Positions 20,035 to 45,328 of a DNA stretch of 64,000 nucleotides are shown here, one piece after another. Every line of letters starts with the position of its first letter. The stretch's first letter is position 1. This DNA is from Streptomyces halstedii (GTDB taxonomy: Bacteria; Actinomycetota; Actinomycetes; Streptomycetales; Streptomycetaceae): NCBI GenBank assembly GCA_000720535.1, contig JOAZ01000001.1, forward strand, positions 469,994 through 533,993, written 5' to 3'. Below the pieces are notes generated by a model, which saw only the letters and a program-made list of their open reading frames with translations, had not been told where the DNA came from and did no database searches. A program made the position numbers and the translations under genes.

Positions 20035-20138
20035 GCACGAACCTCCTCGCCTGGGCGGTGCCATGAGCCGAGGCGCCCGCTCCTGGAACTACCCGGAAAC
20101 CCGATCATGCCAGTACACCGCCCCTGTGTTCGAGTGAG

Positions 20139-20255: not shown

Positions 20256-20261
20256 TGGTGG

Positions 20262-27023: not shown

Positions 27024-27071
27024 GATCACGTCCTTGTCAGGAAGGGTTCGGGCCTCCCTCGACGGGAGGAC

Positions 27072-27158: not shown

Positions 27159-27167
27159 GGCGCGGGC

Positions 27168-28875: not shown

Positions 28876-29070
28876 GGCCGGGACGGTAGGAGCGGCCGCG
28901 GCGGGCCGACAGTCTTGTGGGCACAACCCGTCCTTGTGCCCGTAGTCACCGTTCTGCTCGTTGTGCTCACCCGGAAACGGCGATCCGGGCGCACGGGGCT
29001 GGGCAGAGATCGGTGAGCCGTTTACCTTGCGGCTACACAGGTGTTAAAAGGGCATGTCCGCCGCGGCCGA

Positions 29071-29175
29071 AAACCACCGGTGCGAAAACCGCCGGCACCA
29101 CAACCACAGGCACCACAACCACCGGCACGACAGCCACCGGCACGGAAACCGCCGGCACCACAACCACCAGCACGG
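29071..29175 (+). repeat. Seven tandem 15-bp units upstream of the sensor kinase
   Basis: Seven consecutive 15-nt units resembling CAACCACCGGCACCA run from 29071 to 29175 within the 342-nt gap between ATPase and kinase. The length is a multiple of three and all plus frames stay open. In the kinase frame they would encode a KPPAP/QPPAR pentapeptide array, possible only if translation began near 29041. The strong ribosome site lies after the repeats, so I treat them as leader DNA. Confidence 0.85.
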
Positions 29176-29217
29176 GGACCGTCCGTTCCCGGCCCACCGA
29201 AGAGGGAGGAGGAGAGC

Positions 29218-30927
29218 GTGCGACCACACTGGCCCCAGCGGCTCTCCGGCCAGGTCCTGATGGTGCAGCTCGCCATCACGACCGGAGTGGTGGTCCTGGC
29301 CATCAGCCTCTTCACCGCGCCCCTCGCCCGGGAGCTCGACGAGGAGGCCATGCACCGCGCCCTGGCGATAGCTCAGACGACCGCCGCGGATCCGTCCATC
29401 GCCCAGGGACTGCTCACGACACGGCCGACCCCGGACGGCCCCGTCCAGCGGGAGACCGAGCGCATCCGGCGCGCCACGGGGGCGCTCTACGTGGTGACCA
29501 TGGACATGCGTGGTGTGCGCTGGTCGCACACCACGACGGCCGAGATCGGCAGACACGTGTCCACCGACCCGAGCGATCCCCTGGCGGGCCGTGAGATCAA
29601 GCAGATCGACAGCGGCACGCTGGGGCGCTCCGCCCGCGCGAAGGTCCCGCTGTACGACGGCTCCGGCGACGTCGTCGGAGCCGTGTCCGTCGGCATCGCC
29701 TACGACAGCGTGCGTCACCGTCTGATCGGCGCCATCCCCGCGCTGCTGCTGTGCGCGGCGGCGGCGTTGGCCGTCGGGGCGGGCGTGGCGTTCGCGGTGT
29801 CCCGACGCCTGCGGCGCCGCACCCACGGCATCGCCTTCTCCGACATCTCGGCACTCCTGGACGAACGCGAGGCGATGCTGCACGGGATCCGGGAGGGCGT
29901 GATCGCGTTCGACCCGCGCGGCAGGATCCGGCTGGTCAACGACGAGGCCGCCCGGCTGCTCGGCCTGGACATCGACATGACCGACTACGACCTGGACGCG
30001 GTCATGCCGGCCGGCCGTACCGCCGACGTACTGGCCGGCCGGGTGGAGGGCGTCGACCTCCTGACCGTGAGCGGCGGCCGCGTCCTGGTGGTGAACCGGA
30101 TGCCGACCGCCGACGGCGGCGCCGTGGTGACCCTCCGGGACCGTACCGAGCTGGAACTCCTCGGCCGCGAACTGGACAGTACGCAAGGGCTCCTGGAGGC
30201 CCTGCGCGCCCAAGGGCATGAGCACGCGAACCGGCTGCACACCGTGCTCGGCCTGCTGGAGCTGCGCAGGTACGAGCAGGCGGCCGACTACGTCACGCAC
30301 GCCGTGGGAGACCACCGCAGCTCCGCGGAGGAGATCGCGGAGCGGGTCCACGACCCGCTGGTCTCCGCGCTGCTCGTCGGGAAGGCCGTCGTGGCCGCGG
30401 AACGCGCGGTCGAGCTACGCGTCCGCGCCCGCACACGCCTCCCCGACCGGCTCGTCGCCCCACGCGATCTCGTGACCGTACTGGGCAACCTCATCGACAA
30501 CGCGCTCGACGCCGCCGCGGAGAAGCACAGCGCCGACTCCTTCGTGGAGGTGGAGCTGTGGGCCGAGGACGCCACGGTGCTGCTCCAGGTCTGCGACACC
30601 GGCCCCGGGGTGCCGCCGGAAGCACGTGAGGCCGTCTTCACCGAGGGGTACAGCACCAAGGCTCCGGCCCGCACCGACGTCCGCCCGCAGCCGGCCCGTA
30701 CGCGCGGCCCCCTCCCGCACGGCCGGGGCATCGGACTCTCCCTGGTACGCAGGCTGGCCGAGCGTTACGGCGGGACGGCCAGGGTGACCGCCCGCCCGGG
30801 AGGGGGCGCGGTGTTCACCGTGATCCTGCCGGAAATGATCATCCCGGGCGTCCCGGGTGACCTCCCGGGGGTCGGTACGGGGGAGCCCTCCGGCACCGGG
30901 CTCACCACGGTCGGCGGTGCCCGATGA
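29218..30927 (+). CDS. CitA/DcuS-family sensor histidine kinase
   Basis: A 569-residue membrane sensor. TM1 lies at about residues 14-36 (VLMVQLAITTGVVVLAISLF), then an external PASTA-unrelated PAS-type sensor domain to about 170, TM2 at about 172-195 (IPALLLCAAAALAVGAGVAF), a cytosolic PAS to about 315, then an SpoOB-type dimerisation helix with the phospho-acceptor His in QGHEHANRLHTVLGL (near residue 333). The ATPase core has N-box NLIDNALDA (near 424), DTGPGVP and GRGIGLSLV. GTG 29218 has GGAGGAG 5 nt upstream. Kinases of this family sense extracellular C4-dicarboxylates, citrate or similar anions. It overlaps the response-regulator gene by ATGA. Confidence 0.92.
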   Translation: MRPHWPQRLSGQVLMVQLAITTGVVVLAISLFTAPLARELDEEAMHRALAIAQTTAADPSIAQGLLTTRPTPDGPVQRETERIRRATGALYVVTMDMRGVRWSHTTTAEIGRHVSTDPSDPLAGREIKQIDSGTLGRSARAKVPLYDGSGDVVGAVSVGIAYDSVRHRLIGAIPALLLCAAAALAVGAGVAFAVSRRLRRRTHGIAFSDISALLDEREAMLHGIREGVIAFDPRGRIRLVNDEAARLLGLDIDMTDYDLDAVMPAGRTADVLAGRVEGVDLLTVSGGRVLVVNRMPTADGGAVVTLRDRTELELLGRELDSTQGLLEALRAQGHEHANRLHTVLGLLELRRYEQAADYVTHAVGDHRSSAEEIAERVHDPLVSALLVGKAVVAAERAVELRVRARTRLPDRLVAPRDLVTVLGNLIDNALDAAAEKHSADSFVEVELWAEDATVLLQVCDTGPGVPPEAREAVFTEGYSTKAPARTDVRPQPARTRGPLPHGRGIGLSLVRRLAERYGGTARVTARPGGGAVFTVILPEMIIPGVPGDLPGVGTGEPSGTGLTTVGGAR

Positions 30928-31616
30928 TCAACGTCCTGGTGGTGGACGACGACTTCCACGTGGCCGAGATCAACTCCGCGTATGTGGCCAGGGTTCCCGG
31001 ATTCACGGTGGTGGGCCGTGCGCACAACGCGGCCCAGGCGCTCCTCAGCCTGGAGCGCACCGCCGTGGACCTCGTCCTCCTCGACCACTACCTGCCGGAC
31101 GAGACCGGGGTGACCCTGGTCCGCAGGCTGCGGCAGCTCGGACATCACACCGACGTGATCATGGTGACGGCCGCCCGCGACCTGGCGACCGTCCAGCTGG
31201 CACAGCGCTACGGGGCGCTGCACTACCTGGTCAAACCGTTCACGTACTCGGGGCTGCGCGCGCGCCTCGAAAGCTACGCGGCCCTGCGCCGTTCACTCGA
31301 CGAGACGGCTCGGGCCAGCGAAGCCGGGCAGGACCAGATCGACCGGATCTTCAGCGCGTTCAAGACGGCCGAACCACCCCGGCCCGCCCTCCCCAAGGGC
31401 CACTCGACCGCCACGGTCGGCCTCATCCGGGGCACCCTGACGCGCAGCGCCCTCCCCCTCTCGGCCCACGAAGTCGCCACGCACACCGGCGTGAGCCGAT
31501 CCACCGCGCAGCGGTACCTGAAGTATCTGGAGGGTGTCGGACACGTCAGGCTGACCCTGAAATACGGCGATACGGGACGCCCCGAACACCTCTACTCCTG
31601 GGTGGGCACCCCCTGA
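30924..31616 (+). CDS. CitB/DcuR-family response regulator
   Basis: A 230-residue DNA-binding regulator. The receiver domain has the acidic cluster VVDDDFH, phospho-acceptor Asp near residue 54 (LVLLDHYLPDETG), Thr/Ser in MVTAARD and Lys in YLVKPFTYSGL. A linker leads to a C-terminal helix-turn-helix (LSAHEVATHTGVSRSTAQRY). ATG overlaps the kinase stop (ATGA), so both are made together. Likely targets are the divergent ABC importer or a distant carboxylate transporter; this is inference. Confidence 0.93.
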   Translation: MINVLVVDDDFHVAEINSAYVARVPGFTVVGRAHNAAQALLSLERTAVDLVLLDHYLPDETGVTLVRRLRQLGHHTDVIMVTAARDLATVQLAQRYGALHYLVKPFTYSGLRARLESYAALRRSLDETARASEAGQDQIDRIFSAFKTAEPPRPALPKGHSTATVGLIRGTLTRSALPLSAHEVATHTGVSRSTAQRYLKYLEGVGHVRLTLKYGDTGRPEHLYSWVGTP

Positions 31617-32403: not shown

Positions 32404-33411
32404 TCAGCTCCGGCGCCGCGCCCCCGTGAGGGCGTCCGCGTGCGCGTCCGCGAGGGTGTCCTCCGCCAGCGGGTCGACTGACCCCGGCAGCCAGCGGGAG
32501 GCGGGGTGGACCGTGCGCCAGTGCCGGGCGATGTCCACGCGGCGCGCCACCCAGACGTCGGGGTGGCCGGCCACGACGTCGAGGAACCGGCGCAGGTCCG
32601 CCGCGCGGCCGGGCCGCCCGCTGATCCGCAGGTGCAGCCCGACACTCATCATCCGGGGGCGTTCCGCGCCTTCCTCCAGGAGGAGTTCGAGGGCCCGCGT
32701 CAGATACGCGGAGAAGGACTCGGACTGGAACCCGTAGGTGTTGACGTAGCGGCCGTCGTTGTTGTCCAGGGTGTACGGGAGCACGAGGTGCGCGGTGCCG
32801 TCGACGTCGGACCAGTACGGCAGGTCGTCGCTGAAGGAGTCCGAGTCGTACAGGAAGCCGCCGTGCTCGGCGACGAGCCGACGGGTGTTCGCGCTGTTGC
32901 GGCCCGTGTACCAGCCGAGCGGTGCCGCGCCGCACACCTCGGTGTGGATCCGTACGGCCCGCTCGATGTGCTCGCGCTCGGTCTCCGGGTCGAGTTCGGC
33001 GTAGTTGATCCACCGCAGCGAGTGCGAGGCGATCTCCCACTCCGACTCCCGCGCGGCCGCCACCAGTCCGGGGTTGCGCCGGAGCGACTCCGCTATGCCG
33101 AAGACCGTCACCGGCAGGCCGCGCTCCTCGAAGAGCCGGCGCAGACGCCAGAAGCCCGCGCGGGTGCCGTACTCGTACTGGGACTCGACGTTGAGGTTGC
33201 GGCGGCCCCGTAGCGCGCTGGTCGGCTCCTCGGTGAGGAACGCCTCCGACGCCTCGTCGCCGTGCAGGACGTTGTTCTCGCCGCCCTCCTCGACGTTGAC
33301 GACGAACTGGACGGCCACCTTCGCGCCGCCGGGCCACTGCGCGTGGGGGAGGTCCCCGCCGTAGCCGGCCAGGTCGCGGGGGTAGTCGCCGGAGGGAGAG
33401 GCATACGTCAT
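32404..33411 (-). CDS. Polysaccharide deacetylase-fold protein, PuuE allantoinase-like
   Basis: A 335-residue soluble protein of the NodB-homology fold. Segments typical of the PuuE group are VQFVVNVEEGGENN, FGIAESLRRNPGLV, EIASHSLRWINY (metal site around the His), GWYTGRNSANTRRL, LPYTLDNNDGRY and MMSVGLHLRISGRPGRA. PuuE proteins hydrolyse allantoin or act on amide/N-acetyl bonds. It is divergent from the FCD regulator, and a palindrome shared with the sialidase promoter lies between them, so it may act in the same carbohydrate pathway instead of purine breakdown. No other ureide genes are nearby. Confidence 0.8.
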   Translation of the reverse strand: MTYASPSGDYPRDLAGYGGDLPHAQWPGGAKVAVQFVVNVEEGGENNVLHGDEASEAFLTEEPTSALRGRRNLNVESQYEYGTRAGFWRLRRLFEERGLPVTVFGIAESLRRNPGLVAAARESEWEIASHSLRWINYAELDPETEREHIERAVRIHTEVCGAAPLGWYTGRNSANTRRLVAEHGGFLYDSDSFSDDLPYWSDVDGTAHLVLPYTLDNNDGRYVNTYGFQSESFSAYLTRALELLLEEGAERPRMMSVGLHLRISGRPGRAADLRRFLDVVAGHPDVWVARRVDIARHWRTVHPASRWLPGSVDPLAEDTLADAHADALTGARRRS

Positions 33412-33488
33412 CGAAAGTCCCTGCCTTGATCACGGAAGGCCGTGCCGTCACAGGAACAGGCACGGTATCCTGAGTTCGGCAGGCGTCG

Positions 33489-33500
33489 GTCAGTTCTGAC
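33489..33500. promoter_or_regulatory. Candidate FCD-regulator operator, site 1
   Basis: GTCAGTTCTGAC is an imperfect-centre palindrome in the divergent region between the deacetylase and the FCD regulator. It matches the 34423-34434 site at 10 of 12 positions (GTCAGTnnTGAC). GntR/FCD proteins bind short palindromes of this size. Confidence 0.55.
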
Positions 33501-33644
33501 TAACCATGGTCGCAGAGGTGTGCGCAGTCAAGTGCGCGGCTTCGGCGGCTCGCCCTCGCCCAGGGAGGTTCGCCCCTCGCCTGGGGAGGGGAGGGAACGG
33601 CCGGCGGACACGAGGCGTCCGGCGGGACGAGCGAGGGGACGACG

Positions 33645-34433
33645 ATGAACGACCGCGAAGGGGCCATGCTTGCGCTCCTCCAGCTGATGTCCGCGTCGAG
33701 CGGGCCGCTGGGCACGCGCAACGCCCAGCGGGAGCTGGCGAAACGGGGCAGGGAGCTGAGCGAGTCCTCCGTCTCGCGCCTGCTGCGGGAGATGGACGCC
33801 CGCGGCTGGACCGTGCCCGTCGGCACCAAGGGGCGGACGCTGGCCGGGGAGGGGCGGCGGCGCGCGGCCGAGGCGGTCCTGACGCATCGCGCGTCGGACT
33901 CGTTGCAGCACGCGGTACGCGACACCAAGGACCTCCTCGACCTGCTCAGGGCGCGGAGCGCCGTGGAAAGCGCGGTGGCGGGCGATGCCGCCCGCGCGCC
34001 GGAGGAGGGCCGGCTGCGGGGGTTGCGGGACCTGTGCGACCAGCACGTCCGGGTCGTCGGCAGCGCCCCGATGATCGAGCAGCCGGGGCTGCGGTTCCAC
34101 CGGGCCATAGTGGACATGTCGACGAACCGGATACTCAAGGTGGCCGCCGAGATGATGCTCGCGCCGCACCTGGACCGGGTCGAGGCGGTGCTCGACACGG
34201 TGCTGGCCACCCGCCGCGACGAGGAGAACGTCGTCGCCGAGCACCAGGCCGTCCTGGACCGGATCGAGCGGCGGGACCCCGCCGGTGCCGAGGAGGCCAT
34301 GAGGGCGCACTTCGAGGCGATGATCGCCGCCGTGGAGACGTCGATCGTCGGGGGCAATGAGGTGCTCGTCCAGCGACTGCTGGACTGGGTGCCCGACGGT
34401 GACCAGTCGACGAAGAGCGTTCGTCAGTATTGA
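33645..34433 (+). CDS. FCD-domain transcriptional regulator
   Basis: A 262-residue regulator. The N-terminal 80 residues form a winged helix (LGTRNAQRELAKRGRELSES, SVSRLLREMDARGW) nearer to the RNase R/NrpR-type winged helix than to the classical GntR domain. Residues about 85-245 are an all-helical FCD ligand domain with RARSAVESAVAG, RFHRAIVDMSTNRIL and AEHQAVLDRIERRD, which include the usual Asp/His metal ligands. ATG 33645 has AGGGGA upstream. FCD proteins usually bind sugar acids or other carboxylates. It is divergent from the deacetylase and is immediately followed by the sialidase/ECF operon. Confidence 0.85.
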   Translation: MNDREGAMLALLQLMSASSGPLGTRNAQRELAKRGRELSESSVSRLLREMDARGWTVPVGTKGRTLAGEGRRRAAEAVLTHRASDSLQHAVRDTKDLLDLLRARSAVESAVAGDAARAPEEGRLRGLRDLCDQHVRVVGSAPMIEQPGLRFHRAIVDMSTNRILKVAAEMMLAPHLDRVEAVLDTVLATRRDEENVVAEHQAVLDRIERRDPAGAEEAMRAHFEAMIAAVETSIVGGNEVLVQRLLDWVPDGDQSTKSVRQY

Positions 34434-34513: not shown

Positions 34514-35704
34514 ATGACCCGGACCGGCACCATGACCCCCGCCCGGATCCACCCGAGCCCGACCGGCGCCCGGTACCAGGACGCCCACCGCAGGTGGCAG
34601 GGCATACCGTCCGTCGAGCGCACCGGGGGCGGGCGGCTCTACGCCAACTGGTACACCGGGATGGAGACGGAGACCGGCGGCAACTTCGTCGTGATCACGA
34701 GCAGCGACGACGACGGCACCTCCTGGACCGGCCCCAGGTTCGTGGTCGAGCACGACGACCCCGAGGTCCGCGTGTACGACCCCTGCCTCTGGCGGGACCC
34801 CACCGGGCGGCTCTGGGCGACGTGGAACCAGAGCCGGGACTTCTTCGACGGCAGGATCGGCGTCTGGGGCGCCACGAGCGACAACCCCGACGACGACGAG
34901 CCGGCCTGGACGGCGCCGCGGCGGATCGCCAACGGGATCATGATGAACAAGCCCACCGTGCTCGCCGACGGCACCTGGCTGTTCCCCGCGGCCATCTGGG
35001 CCTGCCACACGCCCACCGAGGAACACGCCCTGGAGTCGGAGCGGTTCTCCAACGTGTACGTCTCACGCGACCAGGGCGAGACGTTCTCCCACCTCGGCGG
35101 GGCCGACGTACCGAACCGCAGCTTCGACGAGCACATGGTCGTCGAGAAGCGCGACGGCGGGCTGTGGATGCTCGTCCGGTGCTTCGACGGCGTGGGCGAG
35201 AGCTTCTCCGAGGACGGGGGACGGACCTGGTCGCCCGGCCGCCGCAGCCACATCGACGGCCCCTGCTCCCGCTTCCACGTCCGCCGGCTCCCGTCGGGCC
35301 GCCTGCTCATGATCAACCACGCGGACTTCGGTGACCGGCGCTCCCGCGAGGAGATCGAGAAGCAGGGCAACGTCAAGGTGTGGAAGGGCCGCACCAACCT
35401 CACGGCCTTCCTCAGCGACGACGACGGCGCCACCTGGCCGCACCGGCTCCTCCTCGACGACCGCGACGACGTCTCCTACCCCGACGCCGCCATCGGTCCC
35501 GACGGCCGCGTCTTCGTCGTCTACGACCACGACCGCTTCGGCGACCGGGCCGTCTACCTCGCCCGGTTCACCGAGGACGACGTCCTCGCCGGCCGGATGG
35601 ACAGCACCGGCTCCGCCACCCGGATCGTCGTCAACCGCGCTCTCGCCCTGCCCGAGCCCGAGGGCGACGCGCCGTCGCCGTCCGGCCCCGCCGCCACCAG
35701 GTGA
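34514..35704 (+). CDS. Sialidase (neuraminidase)-fold glycosidase or lyase
   Basis: A 396-residue protein of the six-bladed BNR/sialidase fold. Four Asp boxes are clear: SDDDGTSW, SRDQGETF, SEDGGRTW and SDDDGATW. There is no signal peptide or membrane segment, so it should act inside the cell on imported oligosaccharide, unlike secreted sialidases. A canonical N-terminal RIP motif was not found; the arginine triad cannot be confirmed. I chose ATG 34514 because AGGAG lies 7 nt upstream. It is the first gene of the operon with the ECF transporter and 2-keto-3-deoxy sugar acid enzymes, so a uronate-type substrate is as likely as sialic acid. Confidence 0.85.
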   Translation: MTRTGTMTPARIHPSPTGARYQDAHRRWQGIPSVERTGGGRLYANWYTGMETETGGNFVVITSSDDDGTSWTGPRFVVEHDDPEVRVYDPCLWRDPTGRLWATWNQSRDFFDGRIGVWGATSDNPDDDEPAWTAPRRIANGIMMNKPTVLADGTWLFPAAIWACHTPTEEHALESERFSNVYVSRDQGETFSHLGGADVPNRSFDEHMVVEKRDGGLWMLVRCFDGVGESFSEDGGRTWSPGRRSHIDGPCSRFHVRRLPSGRLLMINHADFGDRRSREEIEKQGNVKVWKGRTNLTAFLSDDDGATWPHRLLLDDRDDVSYPDAAIGPDGRVFVVYDHDRFGDRAVYLARFTEDDVLAGRMDSTGSATRIVVNRALALPEPEGDAPSPSGPAATR

Positions 35705-35792
35705 CCGGGCTCCCGCTCCGATCGGCCCGACCGTCCCCCAGGGCGTACGCACCCGAGGTCCGCGCCCGCACACACCAGCAGAGGAAAGACTC

Positions 35793-36425
35793 ATGGCAAC
35801 GGCGAAGACAGTGTCGGAGAATCGGTGGACGACGCTCCCCAACTGGAAGTTCCAGCTCCTTCCCCGGGACACGCGCACCATCATCACCTGTGTGTTCCTC
35901 GGGCTGACCATGGCGGTGATCCTCCAGATCACCGAGCGCCTCGACCTGGCGCTGACCGGCGGCAGCATCCCGATCGTCTCGGCGATCGTCGTCTGCGCGA
36001 TCTGGGTGCCCTCCGCGGCGTTCTACGGCCTCACCGGCGCGCTGATCACCGCGTGGATCAACCCGATCATCTCCAACCTCACGGCCTCCCAGCCGATGGC
36101 GCCCTTCCTCTTCCTCACCAACGCCGCGCACACGATCCCCGTCGCGCTGCTGGTGTGGGTCATGAAGTCCCGTGACAAGGGCCTGAAGCTGTGGCAGCTC
36201 ATCCTCATCGGGCAGATCGGCGGTCTGGGCGACGCGCTGATGTTCGGCGTGGGCAACCGCGTCATCCTGCATCTGCCCTGGGGCTTCATCTCCGGCCAGG
36301 TCCTGATCGTCCAGCCGTGCTACCTCGTCGGTTCCCTCATCACCTACGGGATCATGCGGCGACTGGTCAACACCGGACTCGTCCAGAAGGAACGCGACCT
36401 CAAGGCGGCCGCCGATGCCATCTGA
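35793..36425 (+). CDS. ECF transporter S component
   Basis: A 210-residue membrane protein with about six helices, including IITCVFLGLTMAVILQI, GGSIPIVSAIVVCAIWVPSAA, HTIPVALLVWVM and PWGFISGQVLIV. Size and helix layout are those of substrate-binding S components of energy-coupling-factor transporters. It lies directly before the T and two A components in one operon, so it is a dedicated (group I) system. GAGGAAAG lies upstream of ATG 35793. ECF systems usually import vitamins or metals; pairing with sugar-acid enzymes is unusual. Confidence 0.85.
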   Translation: MATAKTVSENRWTTLPNWKFQLLPRDTRTIITCVFLGLTMAVILQITERLDLALTGGSIPIVSAIVVCAIWVPSAAFYGLTGALITAWINPIISNLTASQPMAPFLFLTNAAHTIPVALLVWVMKSRDKGLKLWQLILIGQIGGLGDALMFGVGNRVILHLPWGFISGQVLIVQPCYLVGSLITYGIMRRLVNTGLVQKERDLKAAADAI

Positions 36426-36455
36426 CCGGCCCACACGAATCAAAGGGGTCCCGCG

Positions 36456-37253
36456 ATGAGCGGAACGATGCTCTACCAGCCAGGAAAAACGTTTCTGCAT
36501 CGCGCTGACGCCCGCGCGAAGATCGCCGCGATCATCGTCGTCCTCGTCGTCGCGCTGACGACGACCCGCATCGACGTCCTCGTCGCGCTGACCGCCGTCG
36601 TCGTGATCGGCCTCGCGGTGCTCGCGCGGATCACGCCGGCCTCGTACGCCAAGGCACTGCTCCTCATCATCCCGCTCGTCCTCCTGCTCACCCTCCTGCA
36701 ATCCCTGGTCCAGGGCGGACCGGCGCTGGCCACGATCGGCGGTGTCTCCCTCTCCAGGGCGGGTGTCCTGCTCGGTCTGGGCATCGGGATGCGCCTGTTC
36801 GCCATGGGCATCTGCTTCTACGGGTTCTCGGTGACCACCAGCCCGTCGGACATCGCGCTCGCCCTCCACAAGGTCGGCGTCCCCTACAAGTTCGCCTATC
36901 TGACGAGCTTCGCGTTCCGGTTCCTGCCGCTCCTCCAGGACGAGGCGCGGACCCTGCTCACCGCCATGGCGGTCCGCGGTTCGGCCGAGAGCAGTTCGCG
37001 CCACCCGCTGCGGCGGGGCCGCGCGATCGTCCGGATGCTGTTCCCGATGCTCGCCGGATCCATGAAGCGCAGCAGTGACATCGCCCTGTCCATGGAGCTG
37101 CGCGGCTACAGCCTGCCGGGTCCGCGGACGTTCTACCGGACGACCTCCTTCCGTACCGGTGACGCCCTTCTGGTCGTCGGCGTGGTCCTCCTGGCCGCCG
37201 CGCTCCTGGTCATGCAGTGGCAGCTGCCCGCACCGTTCACCGAAGGAGCATGA
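36456..37253 (+). CDS. ecfT: ECF transporter transmembrane component EcfT
   Basis: A 265-residue membrane protein. The hydrophobic N-terminal half (KIAAIIVVLVVALTTTRIDVL and following) and the long amphipathic coupling helices match EcfT. The two short Ala/Ser-Arg-Gly motifs that contact the ATPases appear as TAMAVRGS and SMELRGYSL. It couples ATP hydrolysis to toppling of the S component. Its stop overlaps an ATG of the next gene. Confidence 0.9.
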   Translation: MSGTMLYQPGKTFLHRADARAKIAAIIVVLVVALTTTRIDVLVALTAVVVIGLAVLARITPASYAKALLLIIPLVLLLTLLQSLVQGGPALATIGGVSLSRAGVLLGLGIGMRLFAMGICFYGFSVTTSPSDIALALHKVGVPYKFAYLTSFAFRFLPLLQDEARTLLTAMAVRGSAESSSRHPLRRGRAIVRMLFPMLAGSMKRSSDIALSMELRGYSLPGPRTFYRTTSFRTGDALLVVGVVLLAAALLVMQWQLPAPFTEGA

Positions 37254-37255
37254 GC

Positions 37256-38122
37256 ATGACTTCACCGGCACTGGCGGTCACCGGCCTGACCGTCCGCTAC
37301 GAGGGCGCCGAGCGGCGCGCACTGGACGAGGTCGGCCTCGTCGTCGCCCCCGGGGAGATCCTGGGCATTCTCGGTCCGACCGGCGCGGGGAAGTCCACGC
37401 TGCTGCAATGCCTGTCCGGCGTCATCCCGCACCACGAGGACAACGCCGCCATGCGCGGTGAGATCGAGGTCTTCGGCCGCCCGCTGGGGGACTTCGCCGG
37501 CCTCTCCGAGATCACCGAGACCGTCGGCCTCGTCATGCAGGACCCGGAGGTGCAGCTCGTCAACACCGTGGTGCGGGAAGAGCTCGTCTGGGGGATGGAG
37601 AACCGGGGGATCCCGGTACCGGAGATCGAGAAGCGCCTGCGACGCGCCACCGACCTCTTCGACATCGGCGGCCTCCTCGACCGGTTCACGCACGCCCTCT
37701 CGGGCGGAGAGAAGCAACGCGTCGTCGTCGCCTCGGTCTTCTGCCTCAGCCCGCGGATCATGCTCCTCGACGAACCGACGTCCGAACTGGACCCCGCCGG
37801 AACCGAAGGCGTCATGGACGCCATCCGCGTGCTCGCCGACGAGGGCGTCACCGTCATCGTCGTCGAGCACAAGATCGAGGAACTGGCCGTCTACGCCGAC
37901 CGGCTCGTCGCCATGCGGGCCGGCCGCATCGAAGCGGCCGGCACCCCGCGCGAGGTCCTCATGGGCCCGGCGGCCCCGGACCGGCCCCAGGTGCTCGACA
38001 TCGCGCTGCGGCTGCGGGAGCGAGGGCACTGGGACGCCGAACTTCCGCTGTCCGTCCCGGCGGCGGTCGCCGGCTGGCAGGCGATGACGCACGACCCGCA
38101 GAGCGACAGGAACCACTCATGA
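37256..38122 (+). CDS. ECF transporter ATP-binding protein (first)
   Basis: A 288-residue ABC ATPase with Walker A GPTGAGKST, Q-loop GLVMQDPEVQLV, signature LSGGEKQRVVVAS, Walker B IMLLDEPTSELD and H-loop VEHKIEE. Q-loop MQDPE and LSGGE are typical for EcfA subunits. ATG 37256 is preferred over ATG 37250 because AGGAG lies 7 nt upstream of the later one. It overlaps the second ATPase gene by ATGA. Confidence 0.92.
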   Translation: MTSPALAVTGLTVRYEGAERRALDEVGLVVAPGEILGILGPTGAGKSTLLQCLSGVIPHHEDNAAMRGEIEVFGRPLGDFAGLSEITETVGLVMQDPEVQLVNTVVREELVWGMENRGIPVPEIEKRLRRATDLFDIGGLLDRFTHALSGGEKQRVVVASVFCLSPRIMLLDEPTSELDPAGTEGVMDAIRVLADEGVTVIVVEHKIEELAVYADRLVAMRAGRIEAAGTPREVLMGPAAPDRPQVLDIALRLRERGHWDAELPLSVPAAVAGWQAMTHDPQSDRNHS

Positions 38123-39006
38123 ACCACCTGGACACGGTCATCGAGATCGACGGCGTCGAGCACACCTACGGCGGAGGGGCCAAGGCCCTGGCGGGGGTGG
38201 ACCTGACCATCGGCCGGGGCGAGTTCGTCGCGATCATCGGCCGGAACGGCTCCGGCAAGACCACCCTCGCCAAGCACTTCAACGGCCTGCTCAGGCCGAC
38301 GAACCCCGGCGGTACGGTCCGTCTGCACACCCGGGACGGCAGGACCGTCGACACCCGCGGCACCCGGCTGCACCACCTCGCCGCGACCGTCGGATACGTC
38401 TTCCAGAACCCGGACCGCCAGATCTTCCACGACACCTGCCGCGAGGAGCTGGAGTACGGCCCGCGCAACATCGGGGCCGACCCGGAGACGCTCGCCCGGG
38501 AGGTGTCCGAGACCATGGAACTGGTGGGACTCGAAGGGCGCGAGGACACCAACCCCATCCACCTCTCCCGGGGTGAGCGCCAGCGGCTCGCCATCGCCTC
38601 GACCCTCGTCATGGGCTGCGACGTCGCGGTCATCGACGAACCCACCACCGGTCAGGACCGGGCCGAGTCGCGCAAGATCCTCGACTCGCTCGCCCACCAC
38701 CACGCCCTGGGCCGCACGGTCGTCATCATCTCCCACGACATGGCGCTGGTCGCCGAGTACGCGACCCGGGTCATCGCCATGCGCAAGGGCCGCGTACTCA
38801 CCGACGGGACGCCCGCGGAGGTCTTCTCCCAGCGCGAGGTGCTCCAGGAGACCAACATCCGGCCTCCGCAGGCGGCGGTGCTCGCCGCCGAACTCGGCCT
38901 GCCGGGCGTCCTGACGGTCGACGACGCCGTACGCGAGATGAGCGCCGTCCTCACCCGGACGCACTCCGGCCCGGCCCCCCTTCCCCACGACGACAAGGTC
39001 TGCTGA
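38119..39006 (+). CDS. ECF transporter ATP-binding protein (second)
   Basis: A 295-residue ABC ATPase with Walker A GRNGSGKTT, Q-loop VFQNPDRQIF, a slightly altered signature LSRGERQRLAIAS (Gly to Arg), Walker B VAVIDEPTTGQD and H-loop SHDMALV. It forms the heterodimer EcfA/EcfA' with the preceding product. Start ATG overlaps the previous stop. The epimerase gene begins 2 nt after its stop, so transporter and enzymes are one transcript. Confidence 0.92.
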   Translation: MNHLDTVIEIDGVEHTYGGGAKALAGVDLTIGRGEFVAIIGRNGSGKTTLAKHFNGLLRPTNPGGTVRLHTRDGRTVDTRGTRLHHLAATVGYVFQNPDRQIFHDTCREELEYGPRNIGADPETLAREVSETMELVGLEGREDTNPIHLSRGERQRLAIASTLVMGCDVAVIDEPTTGQDRAESRKILDSLAHHHALGRTVVIISHDMALVAEYATRVIAMRKGRVLTDGTPAEVFSQREVLQETNIRPPQAAVLAAELGLPGVLTVDDAVREMSAVLTRTHSGPAPLPHDDKVC

Positions 39007-39008
39007 AC

Positions 39009-40001
39009 ATGCGCTATCTGGTCACCGGCGCCCGCGGTTTCGTCATGAGCGTCCTGGTCGAGCGGCTGCTCACCGCCGAGCCCGACGCCGTCGTCACCGC
39101 CGTCGATCTGCACGCGCCCGACGACGTACTCACCGCCTCCCTCGCCGGGCACGAGGGCCGCGTCCGGCACGTCCGGGCCGACGTCACCGACAGTGCGGCC
39201 ATGACGGACCTGCTCGCGCGAAGCGCACCGGACGTCGTCGTCCACGGCGCCACGGTCACCCACGACCCGGCGAGCGAACACCACGACCCCGGGCGCTTCG
39301 TCCACGTCAACACCCAGGGCACCACCACCGTCCTCGACGCGGCCCGGCGCACCGGCGGCGTACGGCGGGTCCTGCTGGTCAGCAGCGGTGCCGTCTACGG
39401 GAGTTCACCCCTGCGGCTGCTCACCGAGGACGCCCCGCCCGAGCCGGACGAGATGTACGGCATCAGCAAACTGGCCGGCGAGCTGATCGCCCGGCGCTTC
39501 GGCCGGCTCTACGGTCTCGACGTCCCCGTGGCACGGCTCACCAAGATGTTCGGGCCCATGGAACGGCCGAGCTCGGGCCGCTCCGTGATGTCCCTGCCGT
39601 ACCACCTCGCGGCGGCCGCCGTGCGGAACCGGCCCGTCAGGCTCACCGAACGGACGCTCCGGGCGGGCGGTGACTGGCTCGGTGCCGCCGAGGCCGCGCG
39701 TGCCCTGCACCTGCTCGCCCGGGGGGAGGGCCGGGGCGACGGGACGTACAACATCTCCAGCGGCGTCCGGACGAGCGTGCCCGACCTCGTGGCGCTCTTC
39801 GGCGTCGAGACCCTCCAGGTCCCGGCCGAGGAGGCCGAGGCCGACATGGACCCCGCCACCGAGTCCGGCAAGAACGGCGTCTACGCCTCCGACCGGGCGC
39901 GGCACGAGCTGAAGTGGGAGCCGGCCGCCCTCGATGCCCAGGTCGCCCGGTACGTCCGATGGGCGCGTGAGCACCCCGGGTTCTTCGCGGCGGACCGATG
40001 A
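39009..40001 (+). CDS. NAD(P)-dependent epimerase/dehydrogenase
   Basis: A 330-residue extended short-chain dehydrogenase. The nucleotide-binding loop is TGARGFVMS, where the last Gly of GxxGxxG is replaced by Met. NAD-ribose Asp is in AVDLHAP. Catalytic Ser and YxxxK are present in LLVSSGAVYG and MYGISKLAGEL. The family includes sugar epimerases, uronate dehydrogenases and D-erythronate dehydrogenases. With a downstream 2-keto-3-deoxy acid kinase and aldolase, oxidation of a sugar or sugar acid is a reasonable reading. ATGA overlap with the kinase gene. Confidence 0.82.
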   Translation: MRYLVTGARGFVMSVLVERLLTAEPDAVVTAVDLHAPDDVLTASLAGHEGRVRHVRADVTDSAAMTDLLARSAPDVVVHGATVTHDPASEHHDPGRFVHVNTQGTTTVLDAARRTGGVRRVLLVSSGAVYGSSPLRLLTEDAPPEPDEMYGISKLAGELIARRFGRLYGLDVPVARLTKMFGPMERPSSGRSVMSLPYHLAAAAVRNRPVRLTERTLRAGGDWLGAAEAARALHLLARGEGRGDGTYNISSGVRTSVPDLVALFGVETLQVPAEEAEADMDPATESGKNGVYASDRARHELKWEPAALDAQVARYVRWAREHPGFFAADR

Positions 40002-40972
40002 CCGCGCGGCGCACGGGCGGCGGCGGGCTCGTCACCTTCGGCGAGTCGATGGGGCGGATCAGCGCCGACCAGATCGGCCTCCTGGACACCTCCCGCACCT
40101 TCACGGTGTCGGTCGGGGGAGCGGAGAGCAACGTCGCCGTCGCGGCGGCCCGCCTCGGCGCGGACGTGACCTGGGCGGGCCGGCTGGGCCGCGACACCGT
40201 CGGAGACCTCGTCGAACGGCGCCTGAGAACCGAGGGGGTACGGCGACGGATCACCCGCGACGACGGTTTCACCGGGCTCATGGTGTGCTCCCGCAGGACG
40301 AACGCGGGCGTCCGGGTCGACTACCACCGGGCCGGGAGCGCCGGGTCGCGTCTGACCCCGGACGACGTGGGCGAGGACCTGATCCGTCAGGCGGACGTGC
40401 TGCACGCCACCGGCATCACCCCGGCCCTCGGCCCCACCGCGCGCACGACGACCTCATGGGCGCTGCGCACCGCACGGGAGGCGGGCGTGACGGTGTCCCT
40501 GGACGTCAACTACCGGGCCAAGCTCTGGTCCCCGCGCGAGGCGGCACCGGCCCTCCGGGAGTTGGTCACCCAGGCGGACATCGTCTTCGCCGGCCCCGAG
40601 GAGGCGGCACTCGTCCTCGGGACCCAGGACGCGTACGCCCGGGAGCCGTTGGAGGCCGCCCGCGCCCTGGTCGCGCTCGGCCCTCACACCGCGGTCGTCA
40701 AGGACGGGCCACGCGGCTGCGCCGCCGTCATCGACGGCCAGGCGTACGTGCGAGAGGCCGTCCCGGTACGGACGGTGGATCCGGTGGGCGCGGGCGACGC
40801 GTTCGTGGCGGGCTACCTCGTGGAGCTCCTCGCCGGCCGCGACGCCGGGGTACGCCTGACGACCGCGACACGCACGGGCGCCTACGCCGTCACCGTCCCG
40901 GGCGACTGCGAGGGCCTGCCGTTCCGTCATGAACTCGACGCCTTCACGGCGGCCGAGGACGTGGCCCGATAG
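39998..40972 (+). CDS. PfkB-family sugar kinase, probable 2-keto-3-deoxygluconate kinase
   Basis: A 324-residue ribokinase-fold enzyme. PfkB signature 1 is VGGAESNVAVAAARLG and signature 2 is DPVGAGDAFVAGYL with the catalytic Asp. The DVNYRAKLWS segment and overall sequence fit the 2-dehydro-3-deoxygluconokinase group. It would phosphorylate KDG or a related keto-deoxy acid to feed the aldolase encoded 66 nt downstream. Start ATG overlaps the epimerase stop. Confidence 0.87.
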   Translation: MTARRTGGGGLVTFGESMGRISADQIGLLDTSRTFTVSVGGAESNVAVAAARLGADVTWAGRLGRDTVGDLVERRLRTEGVRRRITRDDGFTGLMVCSRRTNAGVRVDYHRAGSAGSRLTPDDVGEDLIRQADVLHATGITPALGPTARTTTSWALRTAREAGVTVSLDVNYRAKLWSPREAAPALRELVTQADIVFAGPEEAALVLGTQDAYAREPLEAARALVALGPHTAVVKDGPRGCAAVIDGQAYVREAVPVRTVDPVGAGDAFVAGYLVELLAGRDAGVRLTTATRTGAYAVTVPGDCEGLPFRHELDAFTAAEDVAR

Positions 40973-41038
40973 CGCCCGCCCTCCGCGACAGCGCCCCGCC
41001 CGCCCCGCCACCGGCACCCGAACGGAAAGGCCCGCCAC

Positions 41039-41677
41039 GTGTCCGCCACCCCCGCAGACGTCACCCGGTTCTTCGACGGCTGCTTCGCCACCGTCCCCGT
41101 CATGGCCATCCTCCGTGGCCACCCGCCCGAGCGCACCGTCGAACTGGCGGAGAGGGCATGGGACCTCGGCGTCACCCAGGTCGAGGTACCCCTCCAGGAC
41201 CCGGATGCCCTGCCGTCCCTGCGGGCGGCCGTCGCCGCCGGAGCCCGGCGGGGCAGGGGCGTGGGAGCCGGCACCGTCACCACCCCGGAGCGGCTCCACC
41301 TCGCCCGGGACGCCGGTGCGGCGTTCACCGTCGCCCCCGGATACGACGAGGACGTCCTGGACGAGAGCCTCGACACCGGCATCCCCCACCTCCCGGGCGT
41401 CTCCACCCCCTCGGAGGCGGGCAGAGCACGACGGCGCGGCCTCCACTGGGTCAAGGCGTTCCCGGCGTCCCACCTCGGGCCCGCCTGGGTACGGGCGGTG
41501 CGAGCGCCCTTCCCGGACCTGCGCATCGTCGCCACGGGCGGCGTCGACGCCGAGAACGCCGCGTCCTTCCTCCACGCCGGCGCCCGCGTCGTCGCCCTGG
41601 GATCAGCCCTCGCGGACCCGTCCCAACTCGACCGTGTCACCGCGCTGTTCGCGCGCGACGGTGCGGACGACGGGTGA
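41039..41677 (+). CDS. eda: KDPG/KHG-type class I aldolase
   Basis: A 212-residue aldolase. VMAILRGHPPERTVEL, VGAGTVTTPE and GGVDAENAASFLHAGA follow the Eda pattern; the Schiff-base Lys is in HWVKAFPASHLG. It cleaves 2-keto-3-deoxy-6-phosphogluconate (or the galactonate analogue) to pyruvate and glyceraldehyde 3-phosphate. The conserved Glu that usually sits in the strand-two VRALE-type segment is not obvious here (VEVPLQDP). GTG 41039 has GGAAAGG upstream. It closes the operon. Confidence 0.87.
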   Translation: MSATPADVTRFFDGCFATVPVMAILRGHPPERTVELAERAWDLGVTQVEVPLQDPDALPSLRAAVAAGARRGRGVGAGTVTTPERLHLARDAGAAFTVAPGYDEDVLDESLDTGIPHLPGVSTPSEAGRARRRGLHWVKAFPASHLGPAWVRAVRAPFPDLRIVATGGVDAENAASFLHAGARVVALGSALADPSQLDRVTALFARDGADDG

Positions 41678-41885: not shown

Positions 41886-43505
41886 ATGCGCGCAAAGGAC
41901 GGCGTCGGACAGTCCACGGCCGGGAACGGCCGGGCGCCCGCCTCTCGCACGCCGGCGTCCCGCCCGGCGGTGCGCCCGGACACGCCTCTGACACCGCAGG
42001 CTCTCCGGTCCCTCCAGGGCACCGTGGGCAATGCCGCCGTCGTCCAACTGCTCCACCAAGGTGGGCACCGCCAGGAGCAGGAGCAGGAGCAGGTGCAGGA
42101 GCAGGAGCCGGGCGCCGGCTCCGGGCTTCAGCCGACCGGGCGGGCCGAGGTACAGCGCGCCGCGGTCCAGGACGTCCTCCGCAGTGGTGGCCGCCCTCTC
42201 GACGACACGACCCGCGCGACGATGGAAGCCCGGCTCGGTGCCGATTTCTCCGACGTCCGGGTGCACTCCGGCAGCGCCGCGAGGGCATCGGCCACGGCAC
42301 TGGGCGCACGTGCCTACACCTCGGGCAACCATGTCGTCATCGGTGACGGCGGCGCCGACGCGCACACGCTCGCCCACGAACTCACCCACGTCATCCAGCA
42401 GCGCCAGGGGCCGGTCGCGGGCACGGACAACGGCGACGGCCTGAAGGTCTCCTCTCCGGACGACCGCTTCGAGCGCGAGGCGGAGGCGAACGCGCGCCGA
42501 GCACTCAGCGGCCCGGTCCCCGCCACCGACGCCGGAACCGTTCAGCGGTCCGGCGCGTACTCCCCGCCGGGACGGCACGAGGAACACGTGCAGCGTGCGG
42601 TGGCGTACCGGCAGGACAGCGACACCGGCAGCGCGGAGGACCAGGCCGCGTTCCAGAGGATCGTGACCGGTCTGGACGAGGCGGTCCAATGGGCCTACGA
42701 CTACGTGAGAACCACCCCGGGCCTGGGCGCACTCGCCGAGTTCGACGGGCACACCAAGCACTGGGTGCGCACCTGGGAGGCGTATCTCGGGAGCGACGTC
42801 GGCTCACCCAGCAAGGAGTTCGGCTACGCCGTGGAGTCCGTGGCCACCTATCGGCTGAAGGGCCGGACGACGTTCGCCAACCACCACATCGGGCTTCAGG
42901 AGGTACACGGCGGGACCCGGCCCGATGTCGTACTCACCGGTCCCGGCGGTCGACTCGTCGCGGCACTCGACATCACCGCGTCCAGCAGTGGACTCCATAT
43001 CTTCAAGAAGGACAACTGGGAGGGACGGTTCCCCAGTTTCGCCGAGATCACGTACAACTCCCTCACCCCGGAGACGCTCGTGCTGATGCGCGCGCGGAAG
43101 GACGCCACCGGCTCCGTCTCGGCGCAGGAGCTGGCGGCGTTCGAAGCCGCGGCGACGGAACAGCGCGCCCGGTTCGTGGCACGGCGCTCCGAGATCCGGG
43201 CCGACTTCGACACGTACGCCACTCCTCTGGCCCCCAAGGGCGAGGCGTCCGGGCTCCAGCCCCAACTCAGCATCAATGTTGTCCTGAGCTGGCTCAGGAG
43301 CGGACGGTTCGACCTGTCGAACGATGTGGAGAGGCTGGACAAGACGGCTTCCTGCGTACTCGCCGCACTGGGTGTCAAGGGCAGCAGATGGGGCTTCGAC
43401 ACCGGCTACACCGCCAACGTCGCGCGCGGGGAGTCCTTCCTCATGGTGACCGACACCCGCCCGACGGCGGATGCTTGGGGAAGGACCTTCCAGGTCGAGG
43501 AGTAG
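41886..43505 (+). CDS. eCIS core-domain (DUF4157) protein with unassigned C-terminal domain
   Basis: A 539-residue protein. The N-terminal 90 residues are disordered, with LQGTVGNAAVVQLLHQ and an EQEQEQVQEQEP stretch. Residues about 95-185 are the eCIS core: ARLGADFSDVRVHSGSAA, ARAYTSGNHVVIG and AHELTHVIQQ, a zincin-like HExxH. A linker with ERFEREA-type sequence (DRFEREAEANARRAL) follows. From about 260 a separate domain has FGYAVESVATYRL, RPDVVLTGPGG and VAALDITASSSGLHIFKK, which looks nuclease-like but lacks a clear (D/E)xK. GGAGGAG precedes ATG 41886. No contractile injection genes are in the window; it may be an effector or cargo protein of a system elsewhere. Confidence 0.8.
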   Translation: MRAKDGVGQSTAGNGRAPASRTPASRPAVRPDTPLTPQALRSLQGTVGNAAVVQLLHQGGHRQEQEQEQVQEQEPGAGSGLQPTGRAEVQRAAVQDVLRSGGRPLDDTTRATMEARLGADFSDVRVHSGSAARASATALGARAYTSGNHVVIGDGGADAHTLAHELTHVIQQRQGPVAGTDNGDGLKVSSPDDRFEREAEANARRALSGPVPATDAGTVQRSGAYSPPGRHEEHVQRAVAYRQDSDTGSAEDQAAFQRIVTGLDEAVQWAYDYVRTTPGLGALAEFDGHTKHWVRTWEAYLGSDVGSPSKEFGYAVESVATYRLKGRTTFANHHIGLQEVHGGTRPDVVLTGPGGRLVAALDITASSSGLHIFKKDNWEGRFPSFAEITYNSLTPETLVLMRARKDATGSVSAQELAAFEAAATEQRARFVARRSEIRADFDTYATPLAPKGEASGLQPQLSINVVLSWLRSGRFDLSNDVERLDKTASCVLAALGVKGSRWGFDTGYTANVARGESFLMVTDTRPTADAWGRTFQVEE

Positions 43506-44616: not shown

Positions 44617-45093
44617 TCACCTCCGGGGTGGTCGAAAGTTTCTCGATTTCACTGTGCGCGGACTTCGGCCCCGGCGTCCCTGCCGAGTTGCACGCCGTCG
44701 TCGAGGGCGCCTCACAGGCATGTTGATCACCCCGACAGCGGGACCGCACTTGTCCTCGTAGGCGATGTCGTTCGAGAACAACGGCCACCGACGGGTGAAC
44801 GACGTGGTGCCGTTGATGGGGTCGATGATCCACCGTCTCCCCGAAACCCCGGCGGTCGAGCCCTTCTCCTCGCCGTAGCTGCCGTCCTCCGGCATATGGC
44901 GGGCCAGCTCGTTCCTGACCAGCTCCTCGACAGCGAGATCGATCTCGGTGACCTCGGTGCCATCTTCTTTGCGGCGACTGCCCCACTCTCCGAAGGAGCC
45001 CTGCGCGGACACCTGACCGGTCCGCGTGGCCAAGCCGACAGCGAAGTCGAGGAGCTCTCGGTCAGTGGGCGGAACGTCGAATGCGTGATCCAT
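44617..45093 (-). pseudogene. Truncated inositol-monophosphatase/histidinol-phosphatase gene
   Basis: The first 120 or so residues match the IMPase fold: ELLDFAVGLATRTGQVSAQG, VTEIDLAVEELVRNEL, the EE metal site in YGEEKG, and the IDPINGTTSF motif (the usual D-P-(L/I)-D-G-T with Asn in place of the Asp), then SNDIAYED. After GVINMP the frame turns into Arg-rich non-family sequence and stops at 158 residues, against about 260 for intact enzymes. The second half of the fold, with its metal-binding Asp, is missing. ATG 45093 has GGGAGG 8 nt upstream, so a truncated product may still be made. Confidence 0.75.
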
Positions 45094-45328
45094 TCGGTGA
45101 GCCTCCCATGCCGTGCGGCGCCAGGGTGGCCCCTTCCCCAACCGGCCAGTTCAGGACGACGTTCCGAGTCGGAGTCCGCGTCCGAGCAGGAGCGGGAGCC
45201 GGAGTTGGCGTAGGCAGGTGATGCCGCGAGCACGTTGGGATGGGCCGAGGCGGGGACGAGCGCGTACTTCCCAGCGAATCCGCAGCCTTGGGCCGTGCCT
45301 CGCGGGCGGTGGTGCCGGGCGGAGGCTC

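What the first reader, a model, noticed from the sequence alone, without database searches (positions are those of the whole stretch)
34514..41677. Operon joining a cytosolic sialidase-fold enzyme, a dedicated ECF transporter and a 2-keto-3-deoxy acid route
Eight genes in one orientation with tiny gaps or ATGA overlaps encode a signal-less BNR/sialidase-fold protein, ECF S-T-A-A, an epimerase/dehydrogenase, a KDG-type kinase and a KDPG-type aldolase. ECF systems are known mainly for vitamins and metals. Here the neighbours point to an acidic sugar or oligosaccharide, imported intact, cut inside the cell, oxidised, phosphorylated and split to pyruvate. A dehydratase for the middle step is missing, so either the sialidase-fold enzyme acts as a lyase or the substrate is already keto-deoxy. 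A deacetylase is divergent from the regulator and could remove acetyl groups.
Basis: partly seen in the sequence, partly recalled or inferred. Interest (0 to 1): 0.75.

Follow-up and report, generated by a model that had tools for sequence, protein, structure and literature searches.

The report
ECF importer operon for sugar-like ureide
A rare Streptomyces-type gene cluster appears to import a small ring-shaped nitrogen compound (a hydantoin-like ureide), open the ring and feed its carbon chain into sugar-acid breakdown, an unusual job for a transporter type known mainly for vitamins and metals; this is inferred from genes and their neighbours, not tested.

Summary
The eight genes are there. 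The 'deacetylase' is misnamed: it is a PuuE (allantoinase) family protein, and it belongs to the system, because a palindrome found at one place only in the window lies between it and the regulator and recurs there in 9 of 13 related loci. PuuE + S-T-A-A + SDR is the conserved core (13 of 13 loci, PuuE only a fragment in one). The sialidase-fold gene is in 12 of 13; a kinase and aldolase are nearby in 5 of 13. A Klebsiella plasmid and a haloarchaeal plasmid carry the same S family beside PuuE, HydA or HyuA/HyuB hydantoinases and M20 carbamoylase-type enzymes. So the importer most likely carries a hydantoin-type ureide rather than a plain acidic sugar. It is probably not allantoin: these PuuE proteins form their own clade and the genome has a separate AllB. 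A 2-keto-3-deoxy-acid route is supported by two unrelated kinase families near the locus (PfkB; DGOK). The sialidase-fold protein lacks one triad arginine and may replace the M20 enzyme. The substrate is unknown. Searches of the held papers found no ECF importer for this class.

The parts
32404..33411 (-).
   Evidence: TIGR03212 440.6 bits, cut-off 424.6; PDB PuuE E 1.7e-108; clade apart from urate-type PuuE
33486..33503 (.). operator-like imperfect palindrome, RGTCANNNNTGACYRA in both orientations
   Evidence: only place in the window, 0.02 matches expected; same place in 9 of 13 relatives; pattern was written from the alignment
33645..34433 (+). FCD-domain (GntR-type) regulator
   Evidence: PF07729 65.9 bits
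34514..35704 (+). cytosolic sialidase-fold (BNR_2) protein
   Evidence: PF13088 104.2 bits; model matches GH33 folds
35793..36425 (+). ECF S component, unassigned family
   Evidence: no family hit; fold match 5edl; start conserved in relatives
36456..37253 (+). ECF T component
   Evidence: PF02361 CbiQ 112.5 bits
37256..38122 (+). ECF ATPase A1
   Evidence: PF00005; nearest NCBIfam model ECF_ATPase_1, below cut-off
38119..39006 (+). ECF ATPase A2
   Evidence: PF00005; nearest NCBIfam model ECF_ATPase_2, below cut-off
39009..40001 (+). extended SDR (NDP-sugar-epimerase type), TGxxGFVM motif
   Evidence: PF01370 132.6 bits; motif invariant in 15 of 15 rows
39998..40972 (+). PfkB kinase, nearest to KDG/KDGal kinases
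   Evidence: PF00294 160.7 bits; NF041332 227.1 bits, below its cut-off 440
41039..41677 (+). KDPG/KHG-type aldolase
   Evidence: PF01081 110.7 bits; NCBIfam models below cut-off

Best explanation
An inducible uptake and breakdown regulon for a small hydantoin-type cyclic ureide (or close cyclic amide) that carries a polyhydroxylated, sugar-like carbon chain. The ECF transporter imports it. The PuuE-subfamily enzyme opens the ring to a ureido (N-carbamoyl) acid. The sialidase-fold enzyme then removes the ureido group, a job done in other lineages by an M20 carbamoylase. The SDR carries out a redox step on the sugar-like part, and the KDG-type kinase and KDPG-type aldolase end the chain at pyruvate and a phosphorylated aldehyde. 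The FCD regulator controls PuuE and the operon from one palindrome. Shown from sequence: families, conserved core, shared palindrome, S fold, PuuE clade. Inferred: every reaction, the step order, the substrate.
For: Core PuuE+S+T+A+A+SDR in 13 of 13 loci, PuuE a fragment in L010. Palindrome between PuuE and regulator in the window and 9 of 13 loci. S relatives lie with three unrelated ring-opening families: PuuE and HydA (Klebsiella; HydA 543.9 bits against cut-off 393.25), HyuA/HyuB (Halomarina), and with M20 enzymes above hydantoinase/carbamoylase or allantoate-amidohydrolase subfamily cut-offs. PuuE of the same clade is paired with M20a (69-72% identical to Klebsiella's) in Shinella, Sinorhizobium and Paracoccus yeei. 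Kinase+aldolase near the locus in the window and 5 of 13 loci, from two unrelated kinase families. BNR in one copy in 12 of 13 relatives' genomes; an M20a relative above 35% identity only in the one without BNR (44%).
Against: No reaction was measured. 8 of 13 loci show no linked PfkB or aldolase (DGOK was not searched there), and neither the Klebsiella nor the Pseudonocardia locus shows one, so the sugar part may belong only to some lineages. No dehydratase is evident. Kinase and aldolase stay below NCBIfam cut-offs. A 60.7% identical PuuE lies in a true urate cluster (Azospirillum), and the urate side of the tree has only four rows. Halomarina S is only 36% identical and its stretch has no PuuE or SDR match. 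Only two S-linked lineages lack BNR, so the BNR-for-M20 exchange is thin.
Confidence: 0.5

Rival explanations
1. Uptake of a hydantoin or ureide without any sugar part (simple 5-substituted hydantoin, allantoin-like or cyclic imide). Kinase and aldolase are neighbours serving another route.
For: Kinase and aldolase are missing from 8 of 13 loci and the Klebsiella stretch. PuuE, HydA, HyuA/HyuB and M20 families all fit.
Against: Kinase-aldolase genes recur near the locus in the window and 5 of 13 loci with two unrelated kinase families. For allantoin itself: own genome has AllB, 608.5 bits against cut-off 357.85, and the PuuE clade is distinct. BNR and SDR are left unexplained.
Confidence: 0.2
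2. One reading: an acidic sugar or short oligosaccharide without a nitrogen ring is imported, deacetylated, cut by the sialidase-fold enzyme, oxidised, phosphorylated and split.
For: BNR fold, kinase/aldolase families, FCD regulator with NanR as nearest NCBIfam model, 52.1 bits, far below cut-off 260.
Against: PuuE family instead of a deacetylase; the second metal His is Trp in 14 of 14 rows. S relatives lie with hydantoinases. First triad Arg of sialidases replaced by Gly in 13 of 13 rows.
Confidence: 0.14
3. Scavenging of oxidised nucleosides: hydantoin-type bases on ribose, made by oxidation of pyrimidines.
For: A held paper notes hydantoins as oxidation products of cytosine and thymine and hydantoin uptake genes in gut bacteria (PMC10117117, passages). 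HydA, NCS1 and RidA-type genes in the wider loci.
Against: No nucleoside hydrolase or phosphorylase family was seen in the operon. KDG-type enzymes fit a six-carbon chain better than ribose (inference). The system is rare, though such compounds should be common.
Confidence: 0.1
4. Uptake of a thiamine- or pyrimidine-type vitamin precursor.
For: Nearest solved fold is 5edl (YkoE, name recalled), then ThiT. An NMT1/THI5-like ABC transporter lies upstream at 26007-28926.
Against: No vitamin gene in the S-linked loci read here. The NMT1-like binding protein and permease are not shared with the relatives' flanks. No Rfam match at gathering score in the window.
Confidence: 0.03

Closest known systems
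Group I ECF transporters with a dedicated S-T-A-A set (for example YkoEDC-type; names recalled)
   Same: T, two ATPases and a six-helix-type S protein in one operon; S fold nearest 5edl
   Different: S has no Pfam or NCBIfam match and travels with ring-opening and carbon-breakdown enzymes instead of vitamin or metal genes
PuuE allantoinase (TIGR03212; PDB 3cl6)
   Same: Above the model's cut-off; Trp in place of the second metal His as in 3cl6
   Different: 53% identical to 3cl6; own clade with 13 fixed differences from four urate-type rows; not in a urate cluster
GH33 sialidases
   Same: Fold; Glu206, Arg222, Arg293, Tyr322 align with the sialidase Glu, Arg, Arg, Tyr (roles recalled)
   Different: First triad Arg replaced by Gly30 in 13 of 13 rows; no signal sequence; lies in a ureide regulon
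De Ley-Doudoroff and Entner-Doudoroff-type sugar-acid routes
   Same: Dehydrogenase-family SDR, KDG/KDGal-type kinase, KDPG-type aldolase
   Different: No dehydratase or lactonase family found among the operon's proteins; importer and PuuE added
Hydantoin/ureide clusters (HyuA/HyuB, HydA, M20 carbamoylase, NCS1 permease)
   Same: Ring opening and carbamoyl removal; shared genes in Klebsiella, Rhodococcus and Pseudonocardia loci
   Different: Import by an ECF transporter; in 12 of 13 actinobacterial loci a sialidase-fold protein, and no linked M20a match above 31% identity

Membership tests
ECF transporter (group I) | T component (CbiQ-type) and two ABC ATPases in the operon | tested here: met
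   PF02361 and PF00005 twice; present in 13 of 13 relatives
ECF transporter (group I) | S-component fold | tested here: met
   5edl probability 1.00 but E 2.6e-3; ThiT, 4hzu_S and a biotin S component also in the top ten, among low-probability unrelated hits
ECF transporter (group I) | transport of a vitamin, metal or other micronutrient | not testable with these tools
   context points to a ureide nutrient
PuuE allantoinase | TIGR03212 above cut-off | tested here: met
   440.6 against 424.6 bits
PuuE allantoinase | groups with PuuE of urate clusters | tested here: not met
   separate clade, support 100/99, 13 fixed differences; only four urate-type rows
PuuE allantoinase | activity on allantoin | not testable with these tools
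   needs assay
CE4 polysaccharide deacetylase | second metal-binding His of the H-x-x-x-H motif (motif recalled) | tested here: not met
   His130 kept, Trp134 at the second place in 14 of 14 rows
GH33 sialidase | sialidase propeller fold | tested here: met
   Foldseek E about 1e-13 to 1e-12, TM about 0.6
GH33 sialidase | first triad Arg in the RIP motif | tested here: not met
   Gly30 in 13 of 13 rows; placed by a weak HMMER alignment to Hz136
GH33 sialidase | Glu/Tyr pair and other two Arg | tested here: inconclusive
   E206, R222, R293, Y322 align and are invariant in 13 of 13 rows, but alignments are low-scoring
KDG/KDGal kinase | curated model cut-off | tested here: not met
   best model NF041332 227.1 bits, cut-off 440; PfkB superfamily only
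KDPG/KHG aldolase superfamily | PF01081 above cut-off | tested here: met
   110.7 bits, cut-off 27.8; NCBIfam sub-models below cut-off
KDG-type sugar-acid pathway | sugar-acid dehydratase in the gene set | tested here: not met
   no dehydratase family among the ten proteins at E 0.001 apart from SDR models named for nucleotide-sugar dehydratases, all below NCBIfam cut-off
D-erythronate dehydrogenase | NF043036 above cut-off | tested here: not met
   70.1 bits, cut-off 325

The most novel reading that the evidence does not exclude
The S component founds an ECF importer family for hydantoins fused or joined to a sugar (hydantocidin-type spironucleosides or sugar-urea adducts). After PuuE opens the ring of a spiro compound, the anomeric carbon carries a carboxylate and a ureido group; the sialidase-fold enzyme cleaves this N-ketoside much as sialidases cleave O-ketosides, freeing urea and a 2-keto sugar acid that the SDR and KDG-type enzymes burn. 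It would be a sialidase-fold enzyme acting on a carbon-nitrogen bond in the cytosol, in place of an M20 carbamoylase.
Probability: 0.12. Interest if true: 0.85.

Novelty: new variant of a known kind. Interest (0 to 1): 0.58.

Why it matters
ECF importers are known mainly for vitamins and metals. An unassigned S family tied to ring opening and carbon breakdown in actinobacteria, Klebsiella plasmids and a haloarchaeal plasmid would extend the class to ureide nutrients. It also offers a testable role for a cytosolic sialidase-fold protein, and it marks a PuuE subfamily that is annotated as allantoinase but probably acts on something else.

Tried and rejected
Sialic-acid or uronate route as main reading: set aside because the first triad Arg is missing and because the core is PuuE + ECF + SDR, not kinase/aldolase. 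Allantoin: weakened by AllB elsewhere and the PuuE tree. BNR relatives on Sinorhizobium and Neorhizobium plasmids (27-28% identity; in the Sinorhizobium record with PdxA, an alcohol dehydrogenase and a four-carbon acid sugar kinase) share R222, R293 and Y322 but not E206 and many other invariant positions, so they were not used for function. PuuE relatives beside HydA and a TPP enzyme in Paracoccus aminophilus and Rhizobium johnstonii (36-37% identity) form a deeper branch.

Wider distribution: apart from the window's own genome, S was found in 0 of 60 relatives, 0 of 395 Actinomycetota genomes and 1 of 294 Streptomyces-genus genomes (that hit, L018, was not read further). BNR at E 1e-40: 0 of 395.

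Rows left out: L010 from the PuuE alignment (fragment), L014 from the BNR alignment (no gene). The Phyllobacterium PuuE was cut to its first 320 residues for the tree because its annotated gene is longer.

Literature, all in the held open library. Listings only: 'energy-coupling factor' + 'allantoinase' 0 papers; two of ECF transporter/sialidase/KDPG aldolase 6 papers; hydantocidin 34 papers, 20 listed; 'energy-coupling factor' + 'hydantoinase' 0; PuuE + allantoinase 17; ECF S-component terms 28, 20 listed; hydantoin + ABC transporter + 2-keto-3-deoxygluconate 0; a carbohydrate/novel-substrate search 8, none with 'ECF transporter'; hydantocidin + gene cluster 8. 'ECF transporter' + 'hydantoin' gave 2 papers, passages read: one is a protein table with separate entries, the other speaks of hydantoin uptake genes but has no 'ECF transporter' in its main text. 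PMC11109136 and PMC3084791 were seen as passages. The founding ECF paper is not held. The promoter/terminator scan found no promoter-like site and three terminator-like sites on the minus strand against 1.5 expected.
Full report
What is there. The window lies in a 7.74 Mb genome (G000) whose closest named relatives of this locus are Streptomyces. Eight same-strand genes run from 34514 to 41677: BNR, S, T, A1, A2, SDR, PfkB, aldolase, with gaps of 88, 30, 2, -4, 2, -4 and 66 bases. The S protein matches no family. Its predicted structure (pLDDT 76.0) best matches an ECF S component, 5edl (recalled as YkoE), with ThiT, 4hzu_S and a biotin S component in the top ten, but no match is better than E 2.6e-3. 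I rest the S assignment on fold and on its place before T.

The divergent gene is PuuE-like. It passes the PuuE cut-off (440.6 against 424.6 bits), matches PDB PuuE at E 1.7e-108, and has Trp where deacetylases have their second metal His, in 14 of 14 rows (motif recalled). It belongs to the system. The palindrome RGTCANNNNTGACYRA occurs at one place in the window, readable in both directions (33486-33503; 0.02 expected), in the 233 bases between PuuE and regulator. In the 48 loci then held it was found only in L002-L009, L011 and two stretches of the window's own genome, always between the two genes (9 of 13 relatives). It is absent from L010, L012, L013 and L014. I wrote the pattern after aligning the intergenic regions, so its recurrence there is not an independent test; its absence from the rest of those loci is.

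Conserved core. A scan of the species collection with S gave 13 loci: seven Streptomyces, two Cellulosimicrobium, Ruania, Georgenia, Rhodococcus, Pseudonocardia (short exact peptide patterns, so distant members are missed). Of these 13, S, T, A1, A2 and SDR are in 13; PuuE in 13, but only a C-terminal fragment in L010; a regulator match in 12, only 32-33% identical in L013 and L014 and none on the short L010 contig; BNR in 12, absent in L014. In L011-L014 PuuE stands before S on the same strand.

Kinase and aldolase. Both lie in the fetched flanks of 5 of 13 loci: L003 (79% and 73% identical to the window's), L011 and L013 (PfkB 29-43%, aldolase 41-48%), L008 and L009 (a DGOK-family kinase, unrelated to PfkB, with a KDPG-type aldolase). 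The other eight have no PfkB or aldolase match at E 1e-5, though DGOK was not searched there and L010 is a short contig. L002 lacks both although its S is 96% identical. A PfkB relative at E 1e-25 or better lies elsewhere than at the locus in 10 of 14 genomes; G708-G710 have none and G711 only the one at the locus. In all five such stretches that I fetched, an aldolase is beside it (5 of 5), so the route could be completed from another place.

What the S family imports. In the plasmid collection the S relatives are on four Klebsiella pneumoniae plasmids (65.5% identity) and one haloarchaeal plasmid. The Klebsiella one that I read has M20a, S, T, A, A, SDR, RidA, PuuE and an FCD regulator, then divergently HydA, a second M20, an NCS1 permease and a classical SDR. 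HydA passes the D-hydantoinase cut-off and both M20 proteins pass subfamily cut-offs; the permease is nearest to NCS1 and allantoin permeases, below cut-off. The Rhodococcus and Pseudonocardia loci carry relatives of that permease (53%) and SDR (57-60%), a hydantoinase-like amidohydrolase (Rhodococcus 358.1 bits, just below the cut-off), and an isochorismatase-type hydrolase with only weak family scores; small RidA-like proteins there were recognised by eye, and the Klebsiella RidA found no match in them. The Halomarina plasmid, with S 36% identical over 203 residues, has Hydantoinase_A, Hydantoinase_B, an Asp/Glu/hydantoin racemase family protein and an M20 protein around A-A-S-T, and no PuuE or SDR match. 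So three unrelated ring-opening families accompany one S family. I take this as the best evidence for a hydantoin-like cyclic ureide. The archaeal member is distant and may have another substrate.

Probably not allantoin. In a tree of 24 PuuE rows the 14 ECF-linked rows and three rows paired with M20a (Shinella, Sinorhizobium, Paracoccus yeei) form one clade (support 100/99), apart from four urate-type rows, with 13 positions fixed and different. Against this, the urate sample is small and the Azospirillum urate-cluster PuuE is still 60% identical. The genome has a canonical AllB (608.5 bits, cut-off 357.85). The S family is rare: with the window's own genome counted, 1 of 61, 1 of 396 and 2 of 295 genomes.

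The sialidase-fold protein. The model (pLDDT 79.4) matches GH33 sialidases at E 1e-13 to 1e-12 (rank 1 is a designed protein). HMMER alignments place Glu206, Arg222, Arg293 and Tyr322 at the sialidase Glu, second Arg, third Arg and Tyr, and Gly30 at the first Arg (roles recalled). All five are invariant in 13 of 13 rows. The alignments are weak, that of Gly30 most of all, so this is a lead. The gene is single-copy in 12 of 13 relatives' genomes, and absent from G714 (Pseudonocardia) and from five plasmid records, whose host chromosomes were not searched. An M20a relative above 35% identity exists in 1 of 14 genomes, and that is G714 (44%). So BNR and M20a look interchangeable, though only two S-linked lineages with PuuE lack BNR. 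RidA stands near M20a in Klebsiella, Shinella and Sinorhizobium, but was not seen in the Paracoccus yeei stretch.

Mechanism proposed. Import by ECF; ring opening by PuuE; loss of the ureido group by BNR; a redox step by the SDR; phosphorylation and aldol cleavage by the accessory pair. Each step is inferred. For a hydantoin fused to a sugar, as in hydantocidin (structure recalled), ring opening and urea loss would give a 2-keto hexonate; reaching a 2-keto-3-deoxy acid then needs a dehydration for which no gene here is evident. A side chain that is already 3-deoxy would avoid that. Neither was tested.

Neighbourhood. Upstream lie an NMT1/THI5-like ABC transporter (26007-28926) and a sensor kinase/response regulator pair (29041-31616); downstream an eCIS core-domain protein ends at 43505. 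Apart from the ATPase, which groups with ABC ATPases in general, these are not in clusters shared with the relatives' flanks, and I treat them as unrelated.

Verdict. A real, conserved, probably co-regulated system. Interest 0.58: an ECF importer for a new substrate class would surprise specialists and is easy to test, but the substrate is unknown.

Noticed in passing
L020 10734-18795; L021 7787-9968; L030 10253-12882: Without ECF, PuuE of the same clade is paired with an M20a-type enzyme on Shinella, Paracoccus yeei and Sinorhizobium plasmids; in Shinella it is followed by a sugar-type ABC importer.
   Followed up: partly
L024 6770-14795; L031 6775-15598: Paracoccus aminophilus and Rhizobium johnstonii plasmids share another cluster: HydA, SDRs, an SDR with the TGxxGFVM motif (L024), a distant PuuE relative, a TPP enzyme and a dihydroorotase-family protein.
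   Followed up: no
L015 (NZ_CP009865.1) 10695-23554: A complete-looking ureide/ECF cluster sits on Klebsiella pneumoniae plasmids (4 records), so the system seems to move between distant bacteria.
   Followed up: partly
L010 1-791: In the Ruania contig only the 3' end of PuuE remains; the bases before it look, by eye, like an insertion-sequence transposase at the contig end: interrupted gene or assembly edge.
   Followed up: partly
L007 12328-13208: The second ATPase gene of Streptomyces iconiensis is split into two overlapping matches: frame break or sequencing error.
   Followed up: no
window about 41898-43505 +: Protein with an eCIS core domain (PF13699, 91.2 bits) directly downstream of the operon.
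   Followed up: no
window 26007-28926 and 29041-31616: NMT1/THI5-like ABC transporter on the minus strand, and a Cache/PAS sensor kinase with its response regulator on the plus strand.
   Followed up: no
window 44617-45141 -: Inositol-monophosphatase-family frame that covers only profile positions 3-129 of 271: short or truncated.
   Followed up: no
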